Source: Solirubrobacter phytolaccae
GTDB taxonomy: Bacteria; Actinomycetota; Thermoleophilia; Solirubrobacterales; Solirubrobacteraceae
Assembly: GCF_027587195.1 (NCBI RefSeq)
Contig: NZ_JAPDDP010000051.1
Coordinates: forward strand, 1-52,581
Direction: 5' to 3'
Length of the DNA stretch: 52,581 bases
Shown here: one piece after another, positions 25,016-49,542 of the stretch
Position numbering within the stretch: the first letter of the stretch is position 1
Layout of the letters: every line of letters begins with the position of its first letter
Notes under the pieces: generated by a model
What the model was told of the DNA's origin: nothing
The model's database searches: none
The model's input: the letters and a program-made list of their open reading frames with translations, nothing else
Translations under genes and position numbers: made by a program

Positions 25016-25606
25016 ATGACGAGCCGCAAAGGCCAGGCGCGCCGCGCGCAGGTGGTCGACATCGCGCTCCATCGGTTCGCGGCGCACGGCTACCGCGGCG
25101 TGTCGCTGGCGACGATCGCGCAGGAGGCGGGGATCTCCGAGGCGGGACTGATCCACCACTACCCGACCAAGCCCGCCCTGTTGCTGGCCGTGCTCGATCA
25201 CTACGAGGCCGGCTCGATCGAGCTGATGAAGGCGGCGCGGGAGACCTCCGACGGCTCGTTCACCGGCGCATGGCTGGCGCTCGCGGCCAGTCACGAGGCC
25301 GATCCGACCTACATCCGCCTCTTCACGGTCCTCGCCGCGGAGAGCGTGGCGCCCGAGCATCCGGCGCACGTGTGGTTCGTCGAGCGCTACGAGCGCGTCC
25401 GCGGGCGGATCACCGAGGCGTTCGCGGCCGACCAGGCGGCCGGCCGCATCCGCCCCGAGCTGAGCCCCGAGCTGTGCGCCCGCCAGCTCGTGGCGATGTT
25501 CGACGGGATCCAGCTCCAGTACCTGCTCGCGGGCGGGGCGCTCGACCTCGTCACCCCGCTCCGCGAGCTGCTGGACTCGTTTACGGACTCGTCGTCGAGA
25601 GCGTGA
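25016..25606 (+). CDS. TetR-family transcriptional regulator
   Basis: A 196-residue TetR regulator. The HTH is QVVDIALHRFAAHGYRGVSL followed by ATIAQEAGISEAGLIHHYPT, and a ligand-binding helical domain follows, with LAALVFTV-like helices (YIRLFTVLAAESVAPEHPAH) and LCARQLVAMFDGIQLQYLL near the end. Ligand and targets are unknown. Its last codons (DSSSRA, stop at 25604-25606) are encoded antisense to the end of the sugar dehydrogenase gene, a 26-nt convergent overlap. The same arrangement occurs at the nadR end (48056). Confidence 0.88.
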   Translation: MTSRKGQARRAQVVDIALHRFAAHGYRGVSLATIAQEAGISEAGLIHHYPTKPALLLAVLDHYEAGSIELMKAARETSDGSFTGAWLALAASHEADPTYIRLFTVLAAESVAPEHPAHVWFVERYERVRGRITEAFAADQAAGRIRPELSPELCARQLVAMFDGIQLQYLLAGGALDLVTPLRELLDSFTDSSSRA

Positions 25607-25935
25607 ACGTCACCGTCCGGCTGTAGGTGCCGGTGCGCAGCGCGTCGTTGGCGCCGATCGCCTGCTTGAACGTGATCGGCACCTTGGCGTTGGCCACCGG
25701 CGCGGTCCACTGCGCCGTGCCGAGCTCCACCCGCAGCGGCTGCGGGAGGCTGAACGCGCCGTTGGTCAGGCGGCCGGGGTCGCTCACGCTCAGCGTCGCG
25801 TCCCCCGCGCTGGAGGTCACGGTCGCCTCGCTCGTCGCCGTGTACTCCTTCGCCACGCCCGGCTGGAAGGGCGCGAACGTGGCCGGCCCGCTCAGCGCGA
25901 GCGAGAGCGTCGCCGGCACCGTGCCGCCGACCGTC
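25581..25935 (-). repeat. copy A of a shared C-terminal module (about 110 residues)
   Basis: The C-terminus of the sugar dehydrogenase reads, with the other copy, NGAFSLPQPLRV, ITFKQ, GAND-LRTG-YS-TVTFTLSTT-P. The module is beta-rich, with VEYT/VAKEYTATSEATV and SAGDATLSVSDPG segments. Located at the end of secreted proteins, it may attach them to the envelope. I know no named family for it. Confidence 0.7.
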
Positions 25936-28439
25936 CCCGGTGTCTCGACCGACGCCGCGTAGGGCACGAGCGTGAACGTGTTGAAGAAGATCTCCGGGAA
26001 CGGGTCGTTCGGACCGTGCTCGGCCGGGTTGGTCCACTTCGTCACGAAGTACAGGTCGTGCGCGCCCTGCGGCTTGCGCGCGTCGAGCAGGGCCGTCTGC
26101 ACCTGGTAGATGCGCTGGAGCGAGGCGGCCGGCTTGGTGTCCGGCATCACGACGCTCGTGATCAGCGGGCCGGTCGGCGAGTCCGCGCGGACCTCCATCG
26201 TGCCGCCCGAGCCGCGCGAGCTGATGCTCATCCGGATCGCGCCGATCGTGGCGAGGTCGTAGTTGCGGAACATGAACCAGTGGCCCGGGCCCTGCATGAA
26301 CGTCTGGCCCGTGTAGAGGCCCGTGCCCTCGCCGAGCGGGTAGACGTTCGTGGCCTGCGTGGGCGGGGAGTACTCGGCCGCGTCGGTGGCGGTGAGCGCG
26401 GGCGCGTCGCCGTTGCCGAGGTCGGTGTACGTCGCCTCGAGCACTGTGAACAGGTACAGGTTGCCGTTGTGCGCGGAGTCGCGGTCCGGCGTGACCGTGG
26501 CCGTGCAGTCGGCGCCCGGGTTGACCGTCACGTCCGGGTGCGCGTGCGAGTTGTGGCCGAGCGAGAGCGTCACGGCGATCTTCGTGCAGTCGGCCTTCGT
26601 GCCGTCCTCGGCGTCGCTGACCGCGACCTTGAAGGTGAGCGGCTGGCCGAGCGCGCGCGGCGTGCCGTCGGCGGGCGAGACGATCTTCACGACCGGCCGC
26701 GTGTTGCCGACCGTGATCGGGAAGTTCTGGATCGAGGTCGCGCCATTGGCGTCCGTCACCGTCAGGCGGGCCACGTACTGGCCGGCCGTCGTGTACGTGT
26801 GGCTCGCCGTGACGCCGGTGGCGTCGGCCGTGCCGTCGTTGGTCCAGTCCCAGCTGTAGGTGAGCGCGTCACCGTCGGGGTCGGTCGAGCCGGTCGCGTC
26901 GAAGCTGACCGTGAGCGGCGTGCCGCCGGAGTCCTTGTCCGCCTTCGCCTTGACCGTCGGACGGCGGTTGCCGGCCGCGTAGGTGACGCGGTAGAGCCCG
27001 GTGTCGTCGTTGTTGGCGCCCCAGCCGTTGCCGTAGGCGAGCACGTAGAGCGCGCCGTCGGCGCCGAACTGCATGTCCATCGGCTTCACGAACGTGTGCA
27101 CCGGCAGGAAGAACTCATGGTCCTTGACGGAGCCGTCGCCGTTGAAGGCCGCGGTCGCGACCCAGTCCGTGGTCCAGTCGAAGAAGAAGTAGCGGCCGTC
27201 GAACCACGCCGGGAACTTGGACGTCGACGGGTTGCTCGCGTCGTAGGTGTACTTCGGCCCGGCCATCGCGCCGCCGCCGAACAGGTCCTCGAAGGGGGTC
27301 GTGGGCGAGCCCGCGCTGTAGGTCCACCACATCGTGCGCGCCGTGTTGTCCGGGATGTCGAGCAGGCCCGGGTTGACGAACGTGCCCGCGGCCGGGGTGA
27401 GGTTGTTCGGCGAGTTGTTGACGAGGTTGCCGCAGTCGTAGAAGCCGCGTGACGCGCCCGCGACGTAGTCCCAGTCGCCGTAGGGCTGGCCGGGCACGTA
27501 GCAATAGGGCCAGCCGAAGTTGGCGGGCTTGGTCGTGCGGATCATCGAGACGTGGCCGGCGGGCCCGCGCGTGGCGTCGGCGAGCGTCGCGTCCGGGCCG
27601 TAGTCGGCGAACCACAGCTCGCCGCTGGAGGTCGCGTCGCCGATCGTGAACGGGTTGCGCAGCCCCATCGCGTAGATCTCGCGCAGGGTCTTGCCGCCGC
27701 CGTCCTCGGCGCCGGTGAACAGGTTGCCCGCCGGGATGTCGTACGTGCTGCCCTCGCCCACGGTCGCGCCCGGCTCGCTGCGCGGATGGATGCGCAGGAT
27801 CTTGCCGTTCGGGTTGTTCGTGTTGGCCGAGGTGGCCTGGGCGTCGTTGGCGATCTGGCCCGGGCGCTCGTCCATCGGCGGGTAGCCGAAGCTCGCGCAG
27901 CAGCCGGTGTTGTCGCCCGTGGCGATGTAAAGGTCGCCGTTGGGCGCGAACTCGAGGTCGCCCGCGCTGTGGCCGCCACCGGCGTAGGCCGGGTGCTGGA
28001 CGTTGTAGATCGGCTTCTCGGAGGCGAGGTCGAGCGTGTCGCCGGTGAGCGTGAAGCGGCTCACGCGGCTGATTCGGCTGACCGCGTAGGCCGGCGCCGT
28101 CGGGACGTAGTGCGCGTAGATGTGGTGCGAGGTGGCGAAGTCGGGCGCCGCCGCGAGGCCGACGAAGCCCAGCTCGCCGGGCACGCCCGTCGCGAGCTGC
28201 CCGGCGACGACGGTGGTGCCCGTGGCGGGCTTGAAGAGCTTCAGGCGGCCGTCGCGCTCGGCGAGCAGGACACGCCCGTCGGGCAGCGTCTCGATCCGGA
28301 TGCCCTGCGTGATGTTGCGGTCCAGCAGGCTGACCTCGAAGCGGTCATCCGCCGGGGGTGCACCTTGCGCGCTGGCCGTCGCAGGCACGCCGACGAGTGC
28401 CGTGGCTGCGAGCAGCAGCCCGGTCATGGTCCGTCTCAC
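25581..28439 (-). CDS. secreted PQQ-type glucose/sorbosone dehydrogenase with PKD domain and C-terminal module
   Basis: A 952-residue secreted protein with a signal peptide (TGLLLAATALVGVPATASAQ). Residues about 35-480 are a six-bladed beta-propeller of the GSDH family (GIRIETLPDGRVLLAERDGR, GELGFVGLAAAPDF, FAPNGDLYIATGDNTGCC, REIYAMGLRNPFTIG), which use PQQ to oxidise sugars. A PKD domain follows (DATGSTDPDGDALTYSWDW). After a spacer comes a roughly 110-residue C-terminal module shared with the glycerophosphodiesterase at 48-49.5 kb. GTG at 28439, with GGGAG ahead, is preferred to an ATG at 28427; both keep the signal peptide. Divergent from padR, with shared operators. Confidence 0.87.
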   Translation of the reverse strand: MRRTMTGLLLAATALVGVPATASAQGAPPADDRFEVSLLDRNITQGIRIETLPDGRVLLAERDGRLKLFKPATGTTVVAGQLATGVPGELGFVGLAAAPDFATSHHIYAHYVPTAPAYAVSRISRVSRFTLTGDTLDLASEKPIYNVQHPAYAGGGHSAGDLEFAPNGDLYIATGDNTGCCASFGYPPMDERPGQIANDAQATSANTNNPNGKILRIHPRSEPGATVGEGSTYDIPAGNLFTGAEDGGGKTLREIYAMGLRNPFTIGDATSSGELWFADYGPDATLADATRGPAGHVSMIRTTKPANFGWPYCYVPGQPYGDWDYVAGASRGFYDCGNLVNNSPNNLTPAAGTFVNPGLLDIPDNTARTMWWTYSAGSPTTPFEDLFGGGAMAGPKYTYDASNPSTSKFPAWFDGRYFFFDWTTDWVATAAFNGDGSVKDHEFFLPVHTFVKPMDMQFGADGALYVLAYGNGWGANNDDTGLYRVTYAAGNRRPTVKAKADKDSGGTPLTVSFDATGSTDPDGDALTYSWDWTNDGTADATGVTASHTYTTAGQYVARLTVTDANGATSIQNFPITVGNTRPVVKIVSPADGTPRALGQPLTFKVAVSDAEDGTKADCTKIAVTLSLGHNSHAHPDVTVNPGADCTATVTPDRDSAHNGNLYLFTVLEATYTDLGNGDAPALTATDAAEYSPPTQATNVYPLGEGTGLYTGQTFMQGPGHWFMFRNYDLATIGAIRMSISSRGSGGTMEVRADSPTGPLITSVVMPDTKPAASLQRIYQVQTALLDARKPQGAHDLYFVTKWTNPAEHGPNDPFPEIFFNTFTLVPYAASVETPGTVGGTVPATLSLALSGPATFAPFQPGVAKEYTATSEATVTSSAGDATLSVSDPGRLTNGAFSLPQPLRVELGTAQWTAPVANAKVPITFKQAIGANDALRTGTYSRTVTFTLSTTSP

Positions 28440-28478
28440 TTCTCCCTCTCCCCTTTTGCGTGAGTACCAGACCAAAGT

Positions 28479-46542: not shown

Positions 46543-47124
46543 TTGACCAAAACTGTGTTCGAGCTCTTCGGGGAGCCAGTCTCCTGGGCCGAGCTGTTCG
46601 GCTTCATCACCGGCATCGCCTGCGTGGCGCTCGCCGTCGCCCAGCGGATCGAGACGTTCCCCGTCGGCATCGCCAACAACGTCTTCTTCGTGATCCTGTT
46701 CACGGATGCTCGCCTGTACGCCGACGCGGCGCTCCAGTTGGTCTACATCGCCCTCGGCGTGATGGGCTGGATCGCGTGGGCGAAGTTGAAGCCCCAGGGG
46801 CTCTCTGTGCGGCGCGCGGGGTCCCGGCTGCTGCTCGCGACCGCGGCGGGAGTCGGCGTCGCGACGCTCATCCTCATCCCGATCCTGCGCGCGGCGCACG
46901 GTGCGGCGCCCGGGTGGGACGCGCTGACGACGTCGATGTCGCTCGGCGCGCAGCTGCTGCTGAACCTCAAGCGGCTGGAGACCTGGTACGTGTGGATCGC
47001 CGTGGACGTGATCTACGTCCCGCTGTACTTCAGCCGTGACTTGAACCTGACCGCGCTCGTCTACATCGTCTTCCTCGCGTTGTGCATCCAGGGATGGAGG
47101 CAATGGCGCACCGTCACGGTCTAG
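46543..47124 (+). CDS. pnuC: PnuC nicotinamide riboside/mononucleotide transporter
   Basis: A 193-residue membrane protein of the PnuC family with about seven helices. SWAELFGFITGIACVALAVA and FPVGIANNVFFVILFTDARL are at the start, and the family signature LKRLETWYVWIAVDVIYVPL precedes LYFSRDLNLTALVYIVFLAL. It ends LCIQGWRQWR. PnuC imports nicotinamide riboside for conversion by NadR, the next gene. TTG at 46543 or GTG at 46555 starts it; the first is used. It overlaps nadR by 22 nt, so the two are cotranslated. Confidence 0.93.
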   Translation: MTKTVFELFGEPVSWAELFGFITGIACVALAVAQRIETFPVGIANNVFFVILFTDARLYADAALQLVYIALGVMGWIAWAKLKPQGLSVRRAGSRLLLATAAGVGVATLILIPILRAAHGAAPGWDALTTSMSLGAQLLLNLKRLETWYVWIAVDVIYVPLYFSRDLNLTALVYIVFLALCIQGWRQWRTVTV

Positions 47125-48056
47125 TCCTCGGCAAGTTCCTGCCGCCGCACGGCGGGCACCACGAGCTCGTCGACCACGCGCTGGAGCGGTGCGACCGGGT
47201 CACGGTGCTCGTGCTCGGGTCGGTGACCGAGCGGATCCCGCTGGCCCTGCGCCGCGAGTGGATGCGCGCCCGGCATCCCGCCGCCCGCGTCGTGGCGGGC
47301 TGGAACGAGCTCCCGATCGACTTCGAGGACCCGCACGTCCACGACCTGCACATCGCGCTGATGGAGCGGCTGCTCAACGAGCCGATCGACGCCGTCTTCA
47401 CCGGCGAGGCGTACGGGGACATGCTCGCCGAGCGCTGGGGTGTCGAGCACGTCTGCAACCCGCGCTCCGGCCTCATCTCCGGGACGCAGGTGCGCGCCGA
47501 TCCCGCCGCGTTCTGGGACCAGCTGACGCCGCCGGTCCGCGCGTACCTGTGCCGGCGCGTGGTGATCACGGGCGCGGAGTCGACGGGGACGACGACGCTC
47601 GCACGCGCGTTGGCGGACCGACTGGGCACGAGCTGGGTCCCGGAGGTCGGCCGCGAGGTCACCGAGCAGCGCGGACTCGAATACACGTGGACCAACGCGG
47701 ACTTCGCGATGATCGCCCGCCGCCAGCAGCGCAACGAGGACCGGGCGGCGTTGACCTCCGGCCCGATCCTCGTCTGCGACACCGACGCGCTCGCCACCTG
47801 CATCTGGCAGGAGCGGTACCTCGGCCGCTCGACCGCGGACGTGGAGGCGATCGCCGCCTCACGCACCTACAACCTGACGGTGCTCACCGCCGACGACATC
47901 CCGTTCGTGCAGGACGGGTACCGCGACGGCGAGCACATCCGCGGCTGGATGACTCAGCGCTTCCGCGAGCGGTTGCGCCAACCCTGGATCGAGGTCCGCG
48001 GCACCGTCGACGAGCGCGTCGAGGCCGTGCTCACGGCGCTGTCGTCGAGAGCGTGA
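47103..48056 (+). CDS. nadR: NadR-like bifunctional NMN adenylyltransferase/ribosylnicotinamide kinase
   Basis: A 317-residue two-domain enzyme. The nucleotidyltransferase domain has GKFLPPHGGHHELVDHALER (HxGH at residues 16-19) and NPRSGLISGTQVRADP (the ISG/T-type second motif). The kinase domain has the P-loop GAESTGTTTLARALA (157-171), where Thr stands in the place of the usual Lys, then a lid region EQRGLEYTWTNADFAMIARR. It makes NAD from nicotinamide riboside delivered by PnuC. GGAGG lies 4-8 nt before the ATG at 47103. The last codons (LSSRA, stop) are antisense to the end of the glycerophosphodiesterase gene. Confidence 0.92.
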   Translation: MAHRHGLVLGKFLPPHGGHHELVDHALERCDRVTVLVLGSVTERIPLALRREWMRARHPAARVVAGWNELPIDFEDPHVHDLHIALMERLLNEPIDAVFTGEAYGDMLAERWGVEHVCNPRSGLISGTQVRADPAAFWDQLTPPVRAYLCRRVVITGAESTGTTTLARALADRLGTSWVPEVGREVTEQRGLEYTWTNADFAMIARRQQRNEDRAALTSGPILVCDTDALATCIWQERYLGRSTADVEAIAASRTYNLTVLTADDIPFVQDGYRDGEHIRGWMTQRFRERLRQPWIEVRGTVDERVEAVLTALSSRA

Positions 48057-48380
48057 AGGTGACGGTCGTGCTGTAGCTGCCGGTGCGGAGCGGGTCATTC
48101 GCGCCGACCGACTGCTTGAACGTGATCAACGACTTCGCCGCCGTCACCGGGCCGGGCCAGAAGCTCGGGGCGATGTCCACCCGCAGCGGCTGCGGAAGGG
48201 AGAACGCGCCGTTCTTCAGGTGGCCGGGCTCGGAGACGGAGAGCGTCGCGTTGCCGGCCGTCGAGAGGACGGTCGCCTCCGTCGACGCCGTGTACTCCTT
48301 CTCCACGCCGGGGAGGAACGTGCCGAGCGACGGGGCGGTGCCGAGGGTCAGCTCGAGCGCGCCGCCGACCGCGCCGCCCA
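48031..48380 (-). repeat. copy B of the shared C-terminal module
   Basis: Second copy of the module described at 25581-25935. Shared signatures include TLSVSEPG, NGAFSLPQPLRVD, ITFKQSVGAND and RTGSYSTTVTFTLSTT. Nucleotide identity is strongest over the last 90 bases, where the same antisense stop TGA occurs (nadR here, tetR in copy A). The intervening segment differs in length and in residues. Confidence 0.7.
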
Positions 48381-49542
48381 CGTTGCCGGTGACACCGGTC
48401 ACGGCCGCCGTCGACGGCGTGACCGCGCCGCTGCCGGCGAAGCTGACCTTGGCCGCGCCCGGGGCCGCGACGCAGCCGCCCTTGCCCGTCGTGCGCTCGA
48501 CACCGTCGACGAGCAGCGTCTTGCCCGGGAAGCCCAGGTCGGTGTGCTCGCGGTTGACGAGGCAGACCTCATTGTCGTGGCGCAGGATCGTGGACGGGGC
48601 CGGGATGCCGGCCGCGGCGACGATCAGCTCGGGCTGGTTGGTCTGGACGCCGTCGGCGCCCATGGCGCGGGCGCGGTGGAACTCGTTGACCTCCTCGGCC
48701 TCGCCCGCGTCGTACGCGTGCGGCATGACGACGCCGCAGTTGTCGTGGATGGCGGCGATCGACTCGGCGTCGTACTCGTCGCGGCGCGAGCCGAAGACCG
48801 GCGCGACCTTCGCGATCTCGTACATCAGGAACGACGGCTCCCAGCGATCGCGGTTGTAGATCATGCGCGCGCCCGGGGCAGCCGACCAGATGTTGATGTC
48901 GGCCGAGTTGAAGATCGACTTCGCGACGAGCCCGTACTGCTGGACGAGCTCCGCCACGCCACGCGCGTTGCGGATCTGCTTGAAGTCCAGCTCGACGCCA
49001 CCGCCGACGCGCTTGGCCAGCGCCAGCACCTCTTCGAGCGAGGCGACCTGCGAGCCGTCGTACGGGCCGCCCGTCCAGGGCGCGTAGTCGGCGGCGTTGA
49101 GCGCGCGGACCTCGTCGTAGGTGAGCTCCGTGACGTTGCCGGTCCCGTTGGTGGTGCGGTCGACGGTCGAGTCGTGCAGCGCGACGAACTTGCCGTCCTT
49201 GGTCTCCTGGATGTCGACCTCGACCAGCTCCACGCCGAGCGCGAACGCGTACTCGTAGGCCGCGAGCGTGTTCTCGGGCGCGTACGTGAGCGAGCCGCGA
49301 TGGGCCGAGATGATGGGGCGCTCACGGCCCTTGTCGGGCGTGCCGACGTTGGTCCAGCGGGCCGGCTCGGCCGTCTGGTCACACGCCGGGAGCTGGACGA
49401 TCGGCGTGCGCTCGGCGATCAGCGCGCGCATGCCGATCACCTGCGGGTCGTCGGACGGGGGCGGAGTCGTCTGCGCCTGCGCCGCGGCGACGGGCATCGC
49501 GAGCAGCGATGCCGCCACCGTGAGGGCGAGTCTGATGTTCAT
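48031..49542 (-). CDS. secreted glycerophosphodiester phosphodiesterase with C-terminal module
   Basis: A 503-residue secreted GDPD. Signal peptide NIRLALTVAASLLAMPVAAA. The TIM-barrel catalytic residues are present: ISAHRGSLTYAPENTLAAYE (HRG and the first Glu), VELVEVDIQETKDGKFVALH (ExD) and HDSTVDRTTNGTGNV (second His). The family cleaves glycerophosphodiesters to glycerol-3-phosphate and an alcohol. After about residue 330 comes an Ig-like linker (GKGGCVAAPGAAKVSFAGSG) and the roughly 110-residue module also found in the sugar dehydrogenase. Its 3' end overlaps nadR by 26 nt. Confidence 0.9.
   Translation of the reverse strand: MNIRLALTVAASLLAMPVAAAQAQTTPPPSDDPQVIGMRALIAERTPIVQLPACDQTAEPARWTNVGTPDKGRERPIISAHRGSLTYAPENTLAAYEYAFALGVELVEVDIQETKDGKFVALHDSTVDRTTNGTGNVTELTYDEVRALNAADYAPWTGGPYDGSQVASLEEVLALAKRVGGGVELDFKQIRNARGVAELVQQYGLVAKSIFNSADINIWSAAPGARMIYNRDRWEPSFLMYEIAKVAPVFGSRRDEYDAESIAAIHDNCGVVMPHAYDAGEAEEVNEFHRARAMGADGVQTNQPELIVAAAGIPAPSTILRHDNEVCLVNREHTDLGFPGKTLLVDGVERTTGKGGCVAAPGAAKVSFAGSGAVTPSTAAVTGVTGNVGGAVGGALELTLGTAPSLGTFLPGVEKEYTASTEATVLSTAGNATLSVSEPGHLKNGAFSLPQPLRVDIAPSFWPGPVTAAKSLITFKQSVGANDPLRTGSYSTTVTFTLSTTAP

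What the first reader, a model, noticed from the sequence alone, without database searches (positions are those of the whole stretch)
25581..25935. Shared C-terminal module whose antisense strand ends two unrelated genes
The last 110 or so residues of the sugar dehydrogenase and of the glycerophosphodiesterase (48031-48380) share NGAFSLPQPLRV and GAND-LRTG-YS-TVTFTLSTT-P. In both places a convergent gene (tetR at 25606, nadR at 48056) overlaps by exactly 26 nt and ends SSRA-stop, because the module's DNA contains TCGTCGAGAGCGTGA in antisense. The same geometry twice suggests that the module moved as a DNA segment into gene 3' ends, or that its end is under unusual dual-strand constraint.
Basis: seen in the sequence. 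Interest (0 to 1): 0.68.

Follow-up and report, generated by a model that had tools for sequence, protein, structure and literature searches.

The report
Shared tail of Solirubrobacter secreted proteins
Two unrelated genes end in the same protein tail because this soil bacterium puts that tail on more than a hundred different, probably secreted proteins, likely as a handle for holding them at the cell surface together with a partner protein, while the matching overlaps with neighbouring genes are a side effect of the tail's sequence.

Summary
The antisense geometry is ordinary: the module's conserved Phe-Thr is read TTC-A.. in 120 of 134 copies, which always gives an antisense TGA. Of 67 convergent neighbours 8 end there, and overlaps are rarer than at other convergent pairs (13/67 against 43/69).

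The module is the real finding. It ends all 134 examined carrier ORFs of this Solirubrobacter genome, on many protein families, and no Pfam or NCBIfam family describes it. Outside the genus it is rare. In six other family members it lies with a Large secreted protein and a two-Ig-domain partner, mostly also a Small protein. Partner and module co-occur: 14 genomes both, 1 and 2 alone, 129 neither, of 146. The partner resembles WxLIP, the WxL-interacting protein (hhalign 77%); the module is an all-beta, pilin-like fold with no demonstrable WxL membership. Best reading: a WxL-like surface-retention system, hugely expanded. Secretion is probable; attachment is inferred, not shown.

The parts
25584..25931 (-). 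C-terminal module of the GSDH-like carrier (116 aa, ends ..TYSRTVTFTLSTTSP-stop)
   Evidence: 134 such carrier ORFs in the genome; AF2 model of this copy, mean pLDDT 94
25581..28475 (-). Carrier gene: glucose/sorbosone dehydrogenase-like protein with PKD and CBM6 domains plus the module (5' start uncertain; own gene caller puts it at 28427)
25016..25606 (+). Convergent tetR-family gene; its last 26 nt lie inside the module's coding end
   Evidence: two 78% orthologues (two assemblies of one strain) with the same overlap
25581..25606 (.). 26-nt convergent overlap; the tetR TGA (25604-25606) is the antisense of the module's TTC-ACG (Phe-Thr)
   Evidence: sequence
48034..48381 (-). C-terminal module of the glycerophosphodiesterase carrier (116 aa, ends ..SYSTTVTFTLSTTAP-stop)
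48031..49542 (-). Carrier gene: GDPD-family protein with an N-terminal signal-like stretch and the module
47082..48056 (+). Convergent nadR-like gene (nucleotidyltransferase plus AAA_28 kinase; AAA_28 match ends at residue 312 of 324)
   Evidence: 6 of 7 genus genomes hold it, all 6 with a 26-nt overlap
48031..48056 (.). 26-nt convergent overlap; the nadR TGA (48054-48056) is the antisense of the module's TTC-ACG (Phe-Thr)
   Evidence: sequence

Best explanation
The module is a C-terminal surface-retention domain shared by well over a hundred proteins of Solirubrobacter, most of them probably secreted. It belongs to a dedicated system: many carriers that end in the module, a Small protein that is only signal peptide plus one module, a Large secreted protein, and a WxLIP-like partner of two Ig-type domains. 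Proposed working: carriers are exported by their signal peptides; the C-terminal module folds as a pilin/WxL-like all-beta domain whose last strand is the conserved tail GTYSKTLTFTLSTTxP; the partner binds and stabilises it and holds it at the cell wall, with the Small protein occupying the same sites. Shown here: the C-terminal position, the expansion, the cluster, the co-occurrence and a predicted fold. Inferred: export of most carriers, wall attachment, partner binding and the role of the last strand. The 26-nt overlaps with tetR and nadR are by-products: a convergent gene that enters the module in one of the three antisense frames meets the TGA made by the conserved Phe-Thr codons.
For: All 134 carrier ORFs end in the module tail and in Pro; 78 of 79 named Solirubrobacter loci end likewise, though they were found partly by that tail. 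A signal-like N-terminus is found in 128 of 134 carriers against 204 of 413 other genes if starts up to 60 codons either way are allowed (p 1e-25). Carrier bodies are diverse: 67 Pfam families at E <= 1e-5 in 61 sampled carriers of 134. No sortase-type tail: top 19-residue hydropathy in the last 120 residues is 1.6, 1 of 134 has an LPxTG-like motif in the last 60. Clusters of module carrier, Large and partner outside the genus in G100, G121, G404, G499, G527 and G502; a Small protein is recognised by profile in G499 and G527, by single-sequence likeness in G404, by position and ends only in G100 and G121, and not in G502. Own genome: Large - partner - Small - partner at about C80:42520-46382; same or similar in G522, G523, G524. 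Co-occurrence in 146 family genomes: 14 both, 1 module only, 2 partner only, 129 neither (Fisher p 1.5e-16, by genus 7/1/1/16 p 1.3e-4). Leaving out the three genomes where the partner was discovered: outside the genus 4/1/2/129, p 5e-6; by genus 5/1/1/16, p 0.001. Phylum samples of 396: the 4 module genomes all have the partner, plus 1 genome with the partner only. Partner against seven DUF916/WxLIP-type proteins: hhalign 77%, E 2e-5, 210 columns; against the WxL and module profiles under 1%.
Against: No localisation or binding data exist. With the starts that my gene caller chose, a signal-like N-terminus is found in only 38 of 134 carriers against 89 of 413 controls, no difference. The module is not demonstrably a WxL domain (hhalign 1-5%). 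In the genus the partner has 3-4 copies per genome, and in the own genome only one of four lies near a carrier (C119, 3.3 kb), so partnership rests on co-occurrence and on the clusters outside the genus. The three discovery genomes are 'both' by construction; G272 counts as both on weak matches (module 2.5e-9, partner 4.6e-26). G398 has a weak module match without partner, G444 and G503 weak partners without module. Only 28 (module) or 18 (partner) candidates per genome were scored in the family searches and 10 or 6 in the phylum samples, so absences are non-detections. None of the 18 aligned partners shows the membrane helix usual for WxLIP. General Ig-fold resemblance may add to the WxLIP match. 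The 99.95% match of the module to the Small/outlier set is partly circular, as most of that set was found with the module profile.
Confidence: 0.6

Rival explanations
1. The module is a carbohydrate- or substrate-binding accessory domain of secreted enzymes, not an anchor. It would add a common polysaccharide affinity and have no dedicated partner.
For: Many carriers look like carbohydrate- or peptide-acting enzymes, and 10 of 61 sampled carriers match CBM6; beta folds are common in binding modules.
Against: It is always last, with a Pro end, and sits on amidases, carboxypeptidases, phosphodiesterases and dehydrogenases alike. A stand-alone Small form and a co-occurring partner are not expected for a binding module.
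Confidence: 0.15
2. The module is a pilin-like assembly domain: carriers polymerise or are chained by strand exchange, with the Ig-type partner as a chaperone, as in chaperone-usher pili.
For: The best solved-structure matches of the module model are archaic chaperone-usher pilins CsuA/B (Z 8.4, rmsd 2.6 over 105, 6fqa_D; Z 8.4, rmsd 3.6 over 109, 7zl4_B) and CfaB (Foldseek E 2.6e-3). The partner has two Ig-type domains, and a few of 18 members hit ASH or HYDIN-type families, which I recall as PapD-like.
Against: I noticed no usher gene in the clusters read, but no usher profile was run. Carriers are mostly large proteins (median 852 residues) with the module at the end. The Z values are near the level that a common arrangement gives (note).
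Confidence: 0.2
3. One reading: the 3' end is under special dual-strand constraint, or the module spreads as a mobile DNA segment that supplies a stop to convergent genes.
For: Same 26-nt overlap in 8 of 67 convergent neighbours and at all 6 NadR genes of the genus; module replacement in some orthologues; slight excess of long identical codon runs, 44 pairs of 12 or more codons against 22, 19 and 11 in three permutations.
Against: The stop follows from TTC-A.. of Phe-Thr; overlaps are rarer than at other convergent pairs (13/67 against 43/69; p 3e-7); synonymous choice between copies is random on average.
Confidence: 0.05

Closest known systems
WxL system of Bacillota (small WxL, large WxL, WxLIP = DUF916-DUF3324)
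   Same: Stand-alone small domain protein, larger proteins with the domain at the C-terminus, and an Ig-type interacting protein in one cluster; domain always C-terminal; last strand of the type Y..T(L/I)T....P (A10); partner profile matches WxLIP over both domains. WxL features from PMC9772566 and PMC10599100 (abstracts and some sections).
   Different: Module profile does not match WxL; the two Trp positions, aligned by eye, are Ala and Phe in the consensus; the 18 aligned partners show no C-terminal membrane helix; an extra Large protein; more than a hundred carriers per genome.
Archaic chaperone-usher pilins (CsuA/B) and their chaperones
   Same: The predicted fold of the module is nearest to these among solved structures; the partner is a small, probably secreted two-Ig-domain protein.
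   Different: No sequence-family match; no usher noticed (not searched by profile); the domain is a C-terminal part of larger proteins, except in the Small protein.
PEP-CTERM, GlyGly-CTERM, MYXO-CTERM and LPXTG sorting
   Same: Many-to-one logic: one C-terminal element on dozens of proteins and a partner found by co-occurrence (PMC1569441, PMC3237569, PMC11980579: search listing with start of abstract only).
   Different: As I recall them, those signals are short motifs with a membrane helix and a processing peptidase; this is a folded domain of about 115-140 residues with no hydrophobic tail.

Membership tests
WxL domain (PF13731) | Profile match to the family | tested here: not met
   Of 48 module members scanned none matches WxL; the 11 families that ring at E <= 10 each ring in 1 member, best E 0.0022 for SpaA_2. 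The only own-genome PF13731 hit is another gene, below cut-off. hhalign to WxL sets 1-5%
WxL domain (PF13731) | Two Trp-x-Leu motifs | tested here: not met
   Consensus has A-T-L and F-T-L at the positions that I take as equivalent by eye; outlier relatives L143 and L158 keep one W-T-L (by eye)
WxL domain (PF13731) | Domain always at the C-terminus, with small and large forms | tested here: met
   134 of 134 carriers; Small protein of signal peptide plus module
[quoted passage not shown]
   Analogous clusters outside the genus: G404, G499, G527 with module, Small and partner; G502 with two module genes and partner, no Small found; G100 and G121 with a Small judged by position and ends only. 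The domain itself is not WxL
WxLIP (PF06030 plus PF11797) | Profile match of both Ig domains | tested here: inconclusive
   hhalign 77% over 210 columns, 75% with a set of three; Pfam only weak: WxLIP_HBD in 4 of 18, best E 0.0021, WxLIP_PGBD in 1 of 18, 0.011
WxLIP (PF06030 plus PF11797) | C-terminal transmembrane helix | tested here: not met
   None visible at the ends of the 18 aligned partners (by eye); the longer relatives in L348 and L350 were not aligned
Archaic chaperone-usher pilin | Fold | tested here: inconclusive
   Z 8.4 with rmsd 2.6 over 105, near the level of common arrangements
LPXTG sortase substrates | LPxTG, hydrophobic helix and basic tail at the end | tested here: not met
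   1 of 134 with an LPxTG-like motif in the last 60 residues, top 19-mer hydropathy 1.6 in the last 120, module runs to the stop

The most novel reading that the evidence does not exclude
A previously undescribed C-terminal protein-retention system of the family that holds Solirubrobacter: a folded tag domain on more than a hundred secreted proteins per genome, a stand-alone copy of the tag, and a dedicated two-Ig-domain partner that captures the tag's last beta strand, evolved in parallel to or far diverged from the WxL system and exchanged between genes as a 3' cassette.
Probability: 0.42. Interest if true: 0.8.

Novelty: new variant of a known kind. Interest (0 to 1): 0.62.

Why it matters
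In the order of 2% of the genes of this soil bacterium would be explained at once (134 carriers; about 7,000 genes guessed from the genome size): many unannotated protein ends become members of one system with a partner to test. It gives a candidate many-to-one tag and partner pair outside Bacillota, a handle for predicting the surface proteome of Solirubrobacter, and a possible display tag. It also shows that a striking repeated antisense geometry can be a trivial result of a conserved dipeptide.

Tried and rejected
Dual-strand constraint and recent DNA mobility: tested and not supported. The control of 43/69 overlapping convergent pairs comes from my own simple gene caller, which may add short false genes that overlap, so the difference to 13/67 is indicative. 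Three of the eight 26-nt cases have weak caller scores (21, 26, 27). Four of the 112 copies with an antisense stop at 26 nt have another codon than TTC there.

WxL membership: tested with three profile pairs and rejected. PF13731 was also sought in 296 phylum genomes: 1 with a match over cut-off. A DUF916-like membrane protein next to a module gene (C95, L137) as the general partner: its sequence matches only itself in the own genome at E <= 0.01, so it was dropped as main partner. PF06030 hits in the own genome are weak, and the family rings in 9 of 14 control genomes at that threshold. Partner against solved-structure sequences: chance matches, best E 0.3. Module likewise, best E 0.65.

G503's partner match was missed by my hmmsearch with default filters and appears with another profile or without filters (1e-13, 3e-16); so gene absences are soft.

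Module-swap ranks (the body orthologue's module was the best match in 6 of 47 pairs) overstate swapping, because the named loci were picked by likeness to one module type and modules of one type are all alike. I rely on changes of length class of 8 or more residues (8 of 45 pairs from named loci, 6 of 29 from G522/G525), measured by the place of one motif that may be misread in some pairs, and on the alignments (three pairs with a class change, one without).

Rows left out: 48 of 134 modules in A1; 46 of 81 (2 window, 44 of 79 named) in A2; 61 of 134 carriers; 56 distinct of 79 named loci; 18 of 25 distinct partners in A7. Of 171 matches only 150 were listed. One search kept the best 80 of 158 matches.

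Literature: Solirubrobacter, Thermoleophilia or WxL with surface or sorting terms. Of the 12 papers listed of 215 none holds both Solirubrobacter and WxL. I found no description of this module in these listings; subscription papers and preprints are mostly not held.

Full report
The observation. The window is one whole contig (C116) of a 7.74 Mb genome. The GSDH-like gene and the GDPD gene end in a shared module of 116 residues (25584-25931 and 48034-48381, minus strand), 63% identical. tetR and nadR each run 26 nt into it and end SSRA-stop. All as described.

The overlap explained. The whole-genome search gave 171 matches; the 150 listed fall in 134 ORFs. In the antisense, one frame meets its first stop exactly 26 nt in for 112 of 134. 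The complement of TTC-A, that is Phe followed by Thr or another A-codon, always holds TGA. TTC-A stands at this place in 120 of 134 copies; in 108 of these it gives the first stop and in 12 an earlier stop comes first; 4 further copies have a stop there without TTC. The SSRA ending depends on codon choice and would arise in 9 copies. With my own gene caller, 67 of 134 module genes have a convergent neighbour, 65 a same-strand one and 2 none; 13 of 67 overlap, 8 by exactly 26 nt. In the same regions 43 of 69 convergent pairs without a module overlap. So the geometry is what a convergent gene without an earlier stop gets when it enters the module in that frame. The tails concerned lie beyond the main conserved domain of NadR (AAA_28 match to residue 312 of 324) and at the edge of that of TetR (match to 191 of 197).

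Orthologues. NadR occurs in 6 of 7 genomes of the genus, the own included, and all 6 overlap a module gene by 26 nt, ending ALSSRA or ALSSTA. Two 78% TetR orthologues do the same. G520 and G521 have the contig lengths of two assemblies of strain CPCC 204708 and count as one; G525 has those of S. taibaiensis and G524 those of S. soli. Of 13 more distant TetR relatives read, 4 stand beside a module gene, at 35-38% identity, with overlaps of 4, -3, -3 and -19 nt. In G524 the GDPD gene is reduced to a remnant that keeps only the last part of the module, next to an intact nadR; in G525 the GDPD orthologue carries a more canonical module than the others (by eye).

The module. All 134 carrier ORFs end in it, with Pro last. 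The last 116 residues lack cysteine in 133 of 134, and there is no hydrophobic tail; one carrier has an LPxTG-like motif. Signal peptides are uncertain: with the starts of my gene caller a signal-like stretch is found in 38 of 134 carriers and 89 of 413 other genes, no difference; allowing starts up to 60 codons either way it is 128 of 134 against 204 of 413. I take most carriers as secreted, on this and on their families. The bodies of 61 sampled carriers match 67 Pfam families at E <= 1e-5, among the 25 shown carboxypeptidases, amidases, GSDH, GDPD, glycoside hydrolases, subtilases and phosphoesterases. The module matches no Pfam or NCBIfam family beyond chance-level hits in single members. 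The 79 best loci in named genomes are all Solirubrobacter, and 78 of 79 end in the same tail; the search used part of that tail, which favours this.

Distribution. In 396 genomes of the phylum it was found in 4, all of one family. In 146 genomes of the family it was found in 15: all 7 of the genus, with 136-233 first-look candidates each, of which 28 were scored, and 8 others with 1-3 matches.

Evolution of the copies. Between copies on unrelated bodies, codon identity at equal residues is 0.651, against 0.653 when codons are permuted within columns, so the likeness is kept at protein level; long identical runs are slightly in excess (44 pairs against 22, 19 and 11). Yet among orthologous carriers the module sometimes changes type: length class differs by 8 or more residues in 8 of 45 and 6 of 29 pairs, and identity falls sharply at the module border in L201, more gently in L165 and L219. 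Occasional exchange of the 3' cassette is likely; a recent burst is not.

Structure. The AlphaFold2 model of the window copy has mean pLDDT 94 and is all beta. Foldseek gives pilin subunits first (CfaB, E 2.6e-3); VIA-align gives CsuA/B at Z 8.4 with rmsd 2.6 over 105. Such Z values may reflect a common arrangement only.

The partner. In three family members outside the genus the module gene heads a compact cluster: module carrier, Large secreted protein, Small secreted protein, and a protein of about 255 residues with a signal-like start and two Ig-type parts (G100, G121, G404). In G404 a DUF916-like membrane protein lies between the carrier and the Large gene. The Small proteins of G100 and G121 are judged by position and ends only; a search with that of G100 found itself alone. 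The partners of G121 and G100 are 47% and 49% identical to that of G404. A search with the three found partners in 16 of 146 family genomes. Together: 14 genomes have both, G398 has only a weak module match, G444 and G503 only weak partner matches, 129 neither (Fisher p 1.5e-16; outside the genus 7, 1, 2, 129, p 1.7e-9; by genus 7, 1, 1, 16, p 1.3e-4). The three discovery genomes are in this by construction; without them, outside the genus, 4, 1, 2, 129, p 5e-6, and by genus 5, 1, 1, 16, p 0.001. Only 18 or 28 candidates per genome were scored. In the phylum sample the partner was found in 5 of 396: the 4 module genomes, two of them discovery genomes, and one distant genome. In the genus there are 3-4 partner genes per genome. 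The own genome has Large - partner - Small - partner at about C80:42520-46382 and further partners on C137 and C119, the latter 3.3 kb from a carrier. The C80 Small protein is 168 residues, a signal-like start plus one module ending SYRKVLLVTLSTDTP. Same or similar clusters are in G522, G523 and G524. Outside the genus, G499, G527 and a second place in G404 also hold module, Large, Small and partner; G502 has two module genes, Large and partner; G272 has a small module-like protein beside a longer partner relative.

Relation to WxL. From two papers of which I read the abstracts and a few sections (PMC9772566: 3.1, 3.2, 3.5; PMC10599100: 2.2 and 3): WxL domains are always C-terminal, occur as small and large proteins, and cluster with WxLIP, which has two Ig-type domains and nearly always a membrane helix; over 91% of 938 known sequences are from Firmicutes. 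The layout here is the same. The partner profile matches seven DUF916/WxLIP-type proteins (six from Bacillaceae plasmids, five of them annotated as DUF916, and one from an unnamed actinobacterium) at 77% over 210 columns, and the WxL and module profiles of this work under 1%. A mixed set that includes membrane proteins of this family gives 97%, but it was chosen by weak likeness to the same Pfam family. The module profile does not match WxL (1-5%). Two outlier relatives, L143 and L158, have a W-T-L where the module has A-T-L (by eye), which hints at a bridge but proves nothing. So it works like a WxL system; membership of the WxL family is not met.

How it most likely works. Shown: C-terminal position, scale, partner by co-occurrence and cluster, predicted fold. 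Inferred: export of most carriers, that the partner holds the module, that the last strand is the contact, that the result is retention at the cell surface. I put this at 0.60. A pilin-like assembly (0.2) and a carbohydrate-binding accessory domain (0.15) are the main rivals.

Verdict. The repeated antisense geometry is ordinary. The module behind it is, as far as these searches show, an undescribed C-terminal domain with a likely dedicated partner, expanded to more than a hundred carriers per genome in Solirubrobacter, and best seen as a new variant of the WxL kind of surface system.

Noticed in passing
L136 (C136:95063-96755, minus strand): A 213-aa protein with a signal-like start and a sub-threshold WxL match (E 2e-4) next to a 339-aa DUF916-like membrane protein, convergent to a module gene: a second, more WxL-like pair in the same genome.
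   Followed up: partly
L137 (C95:38548-39477) and L267:9515-10513: A DUF916-like membrane protein directly follows a metallophosphoesterase-type carrier both in the own genome and in G404 of another genus, so this gene pair seems conserved.
   Followed up: partly
L243 (G524 beside nadR): The GDPD carrier is a decayed remnant with most of its inside gone; only the end of the module, overlapping nadR, remains.
   Followed up: no
L265:7070-8326, L266:8810-10042: In two family members outside the genus the carrier body resembles an HtaA-type haem-binding protein (weak Pfam match for L265, E 0.0054; L266 by eye); in L265 it lies beside genes that look like a haem or iron transporter (by eye).
   Followed up: no
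L253, L256, L257, L259: Relatives of the window's tetR stand convergent to module genes at four other places in the genus, with an overlap of 4 nt or none.
   Followed up: no
L180 (Solirubrobacter taibaiensis): The only one of 79 named loci whose carrier ends in another sequence, as from a frameshift near the end.
   Followed up: no
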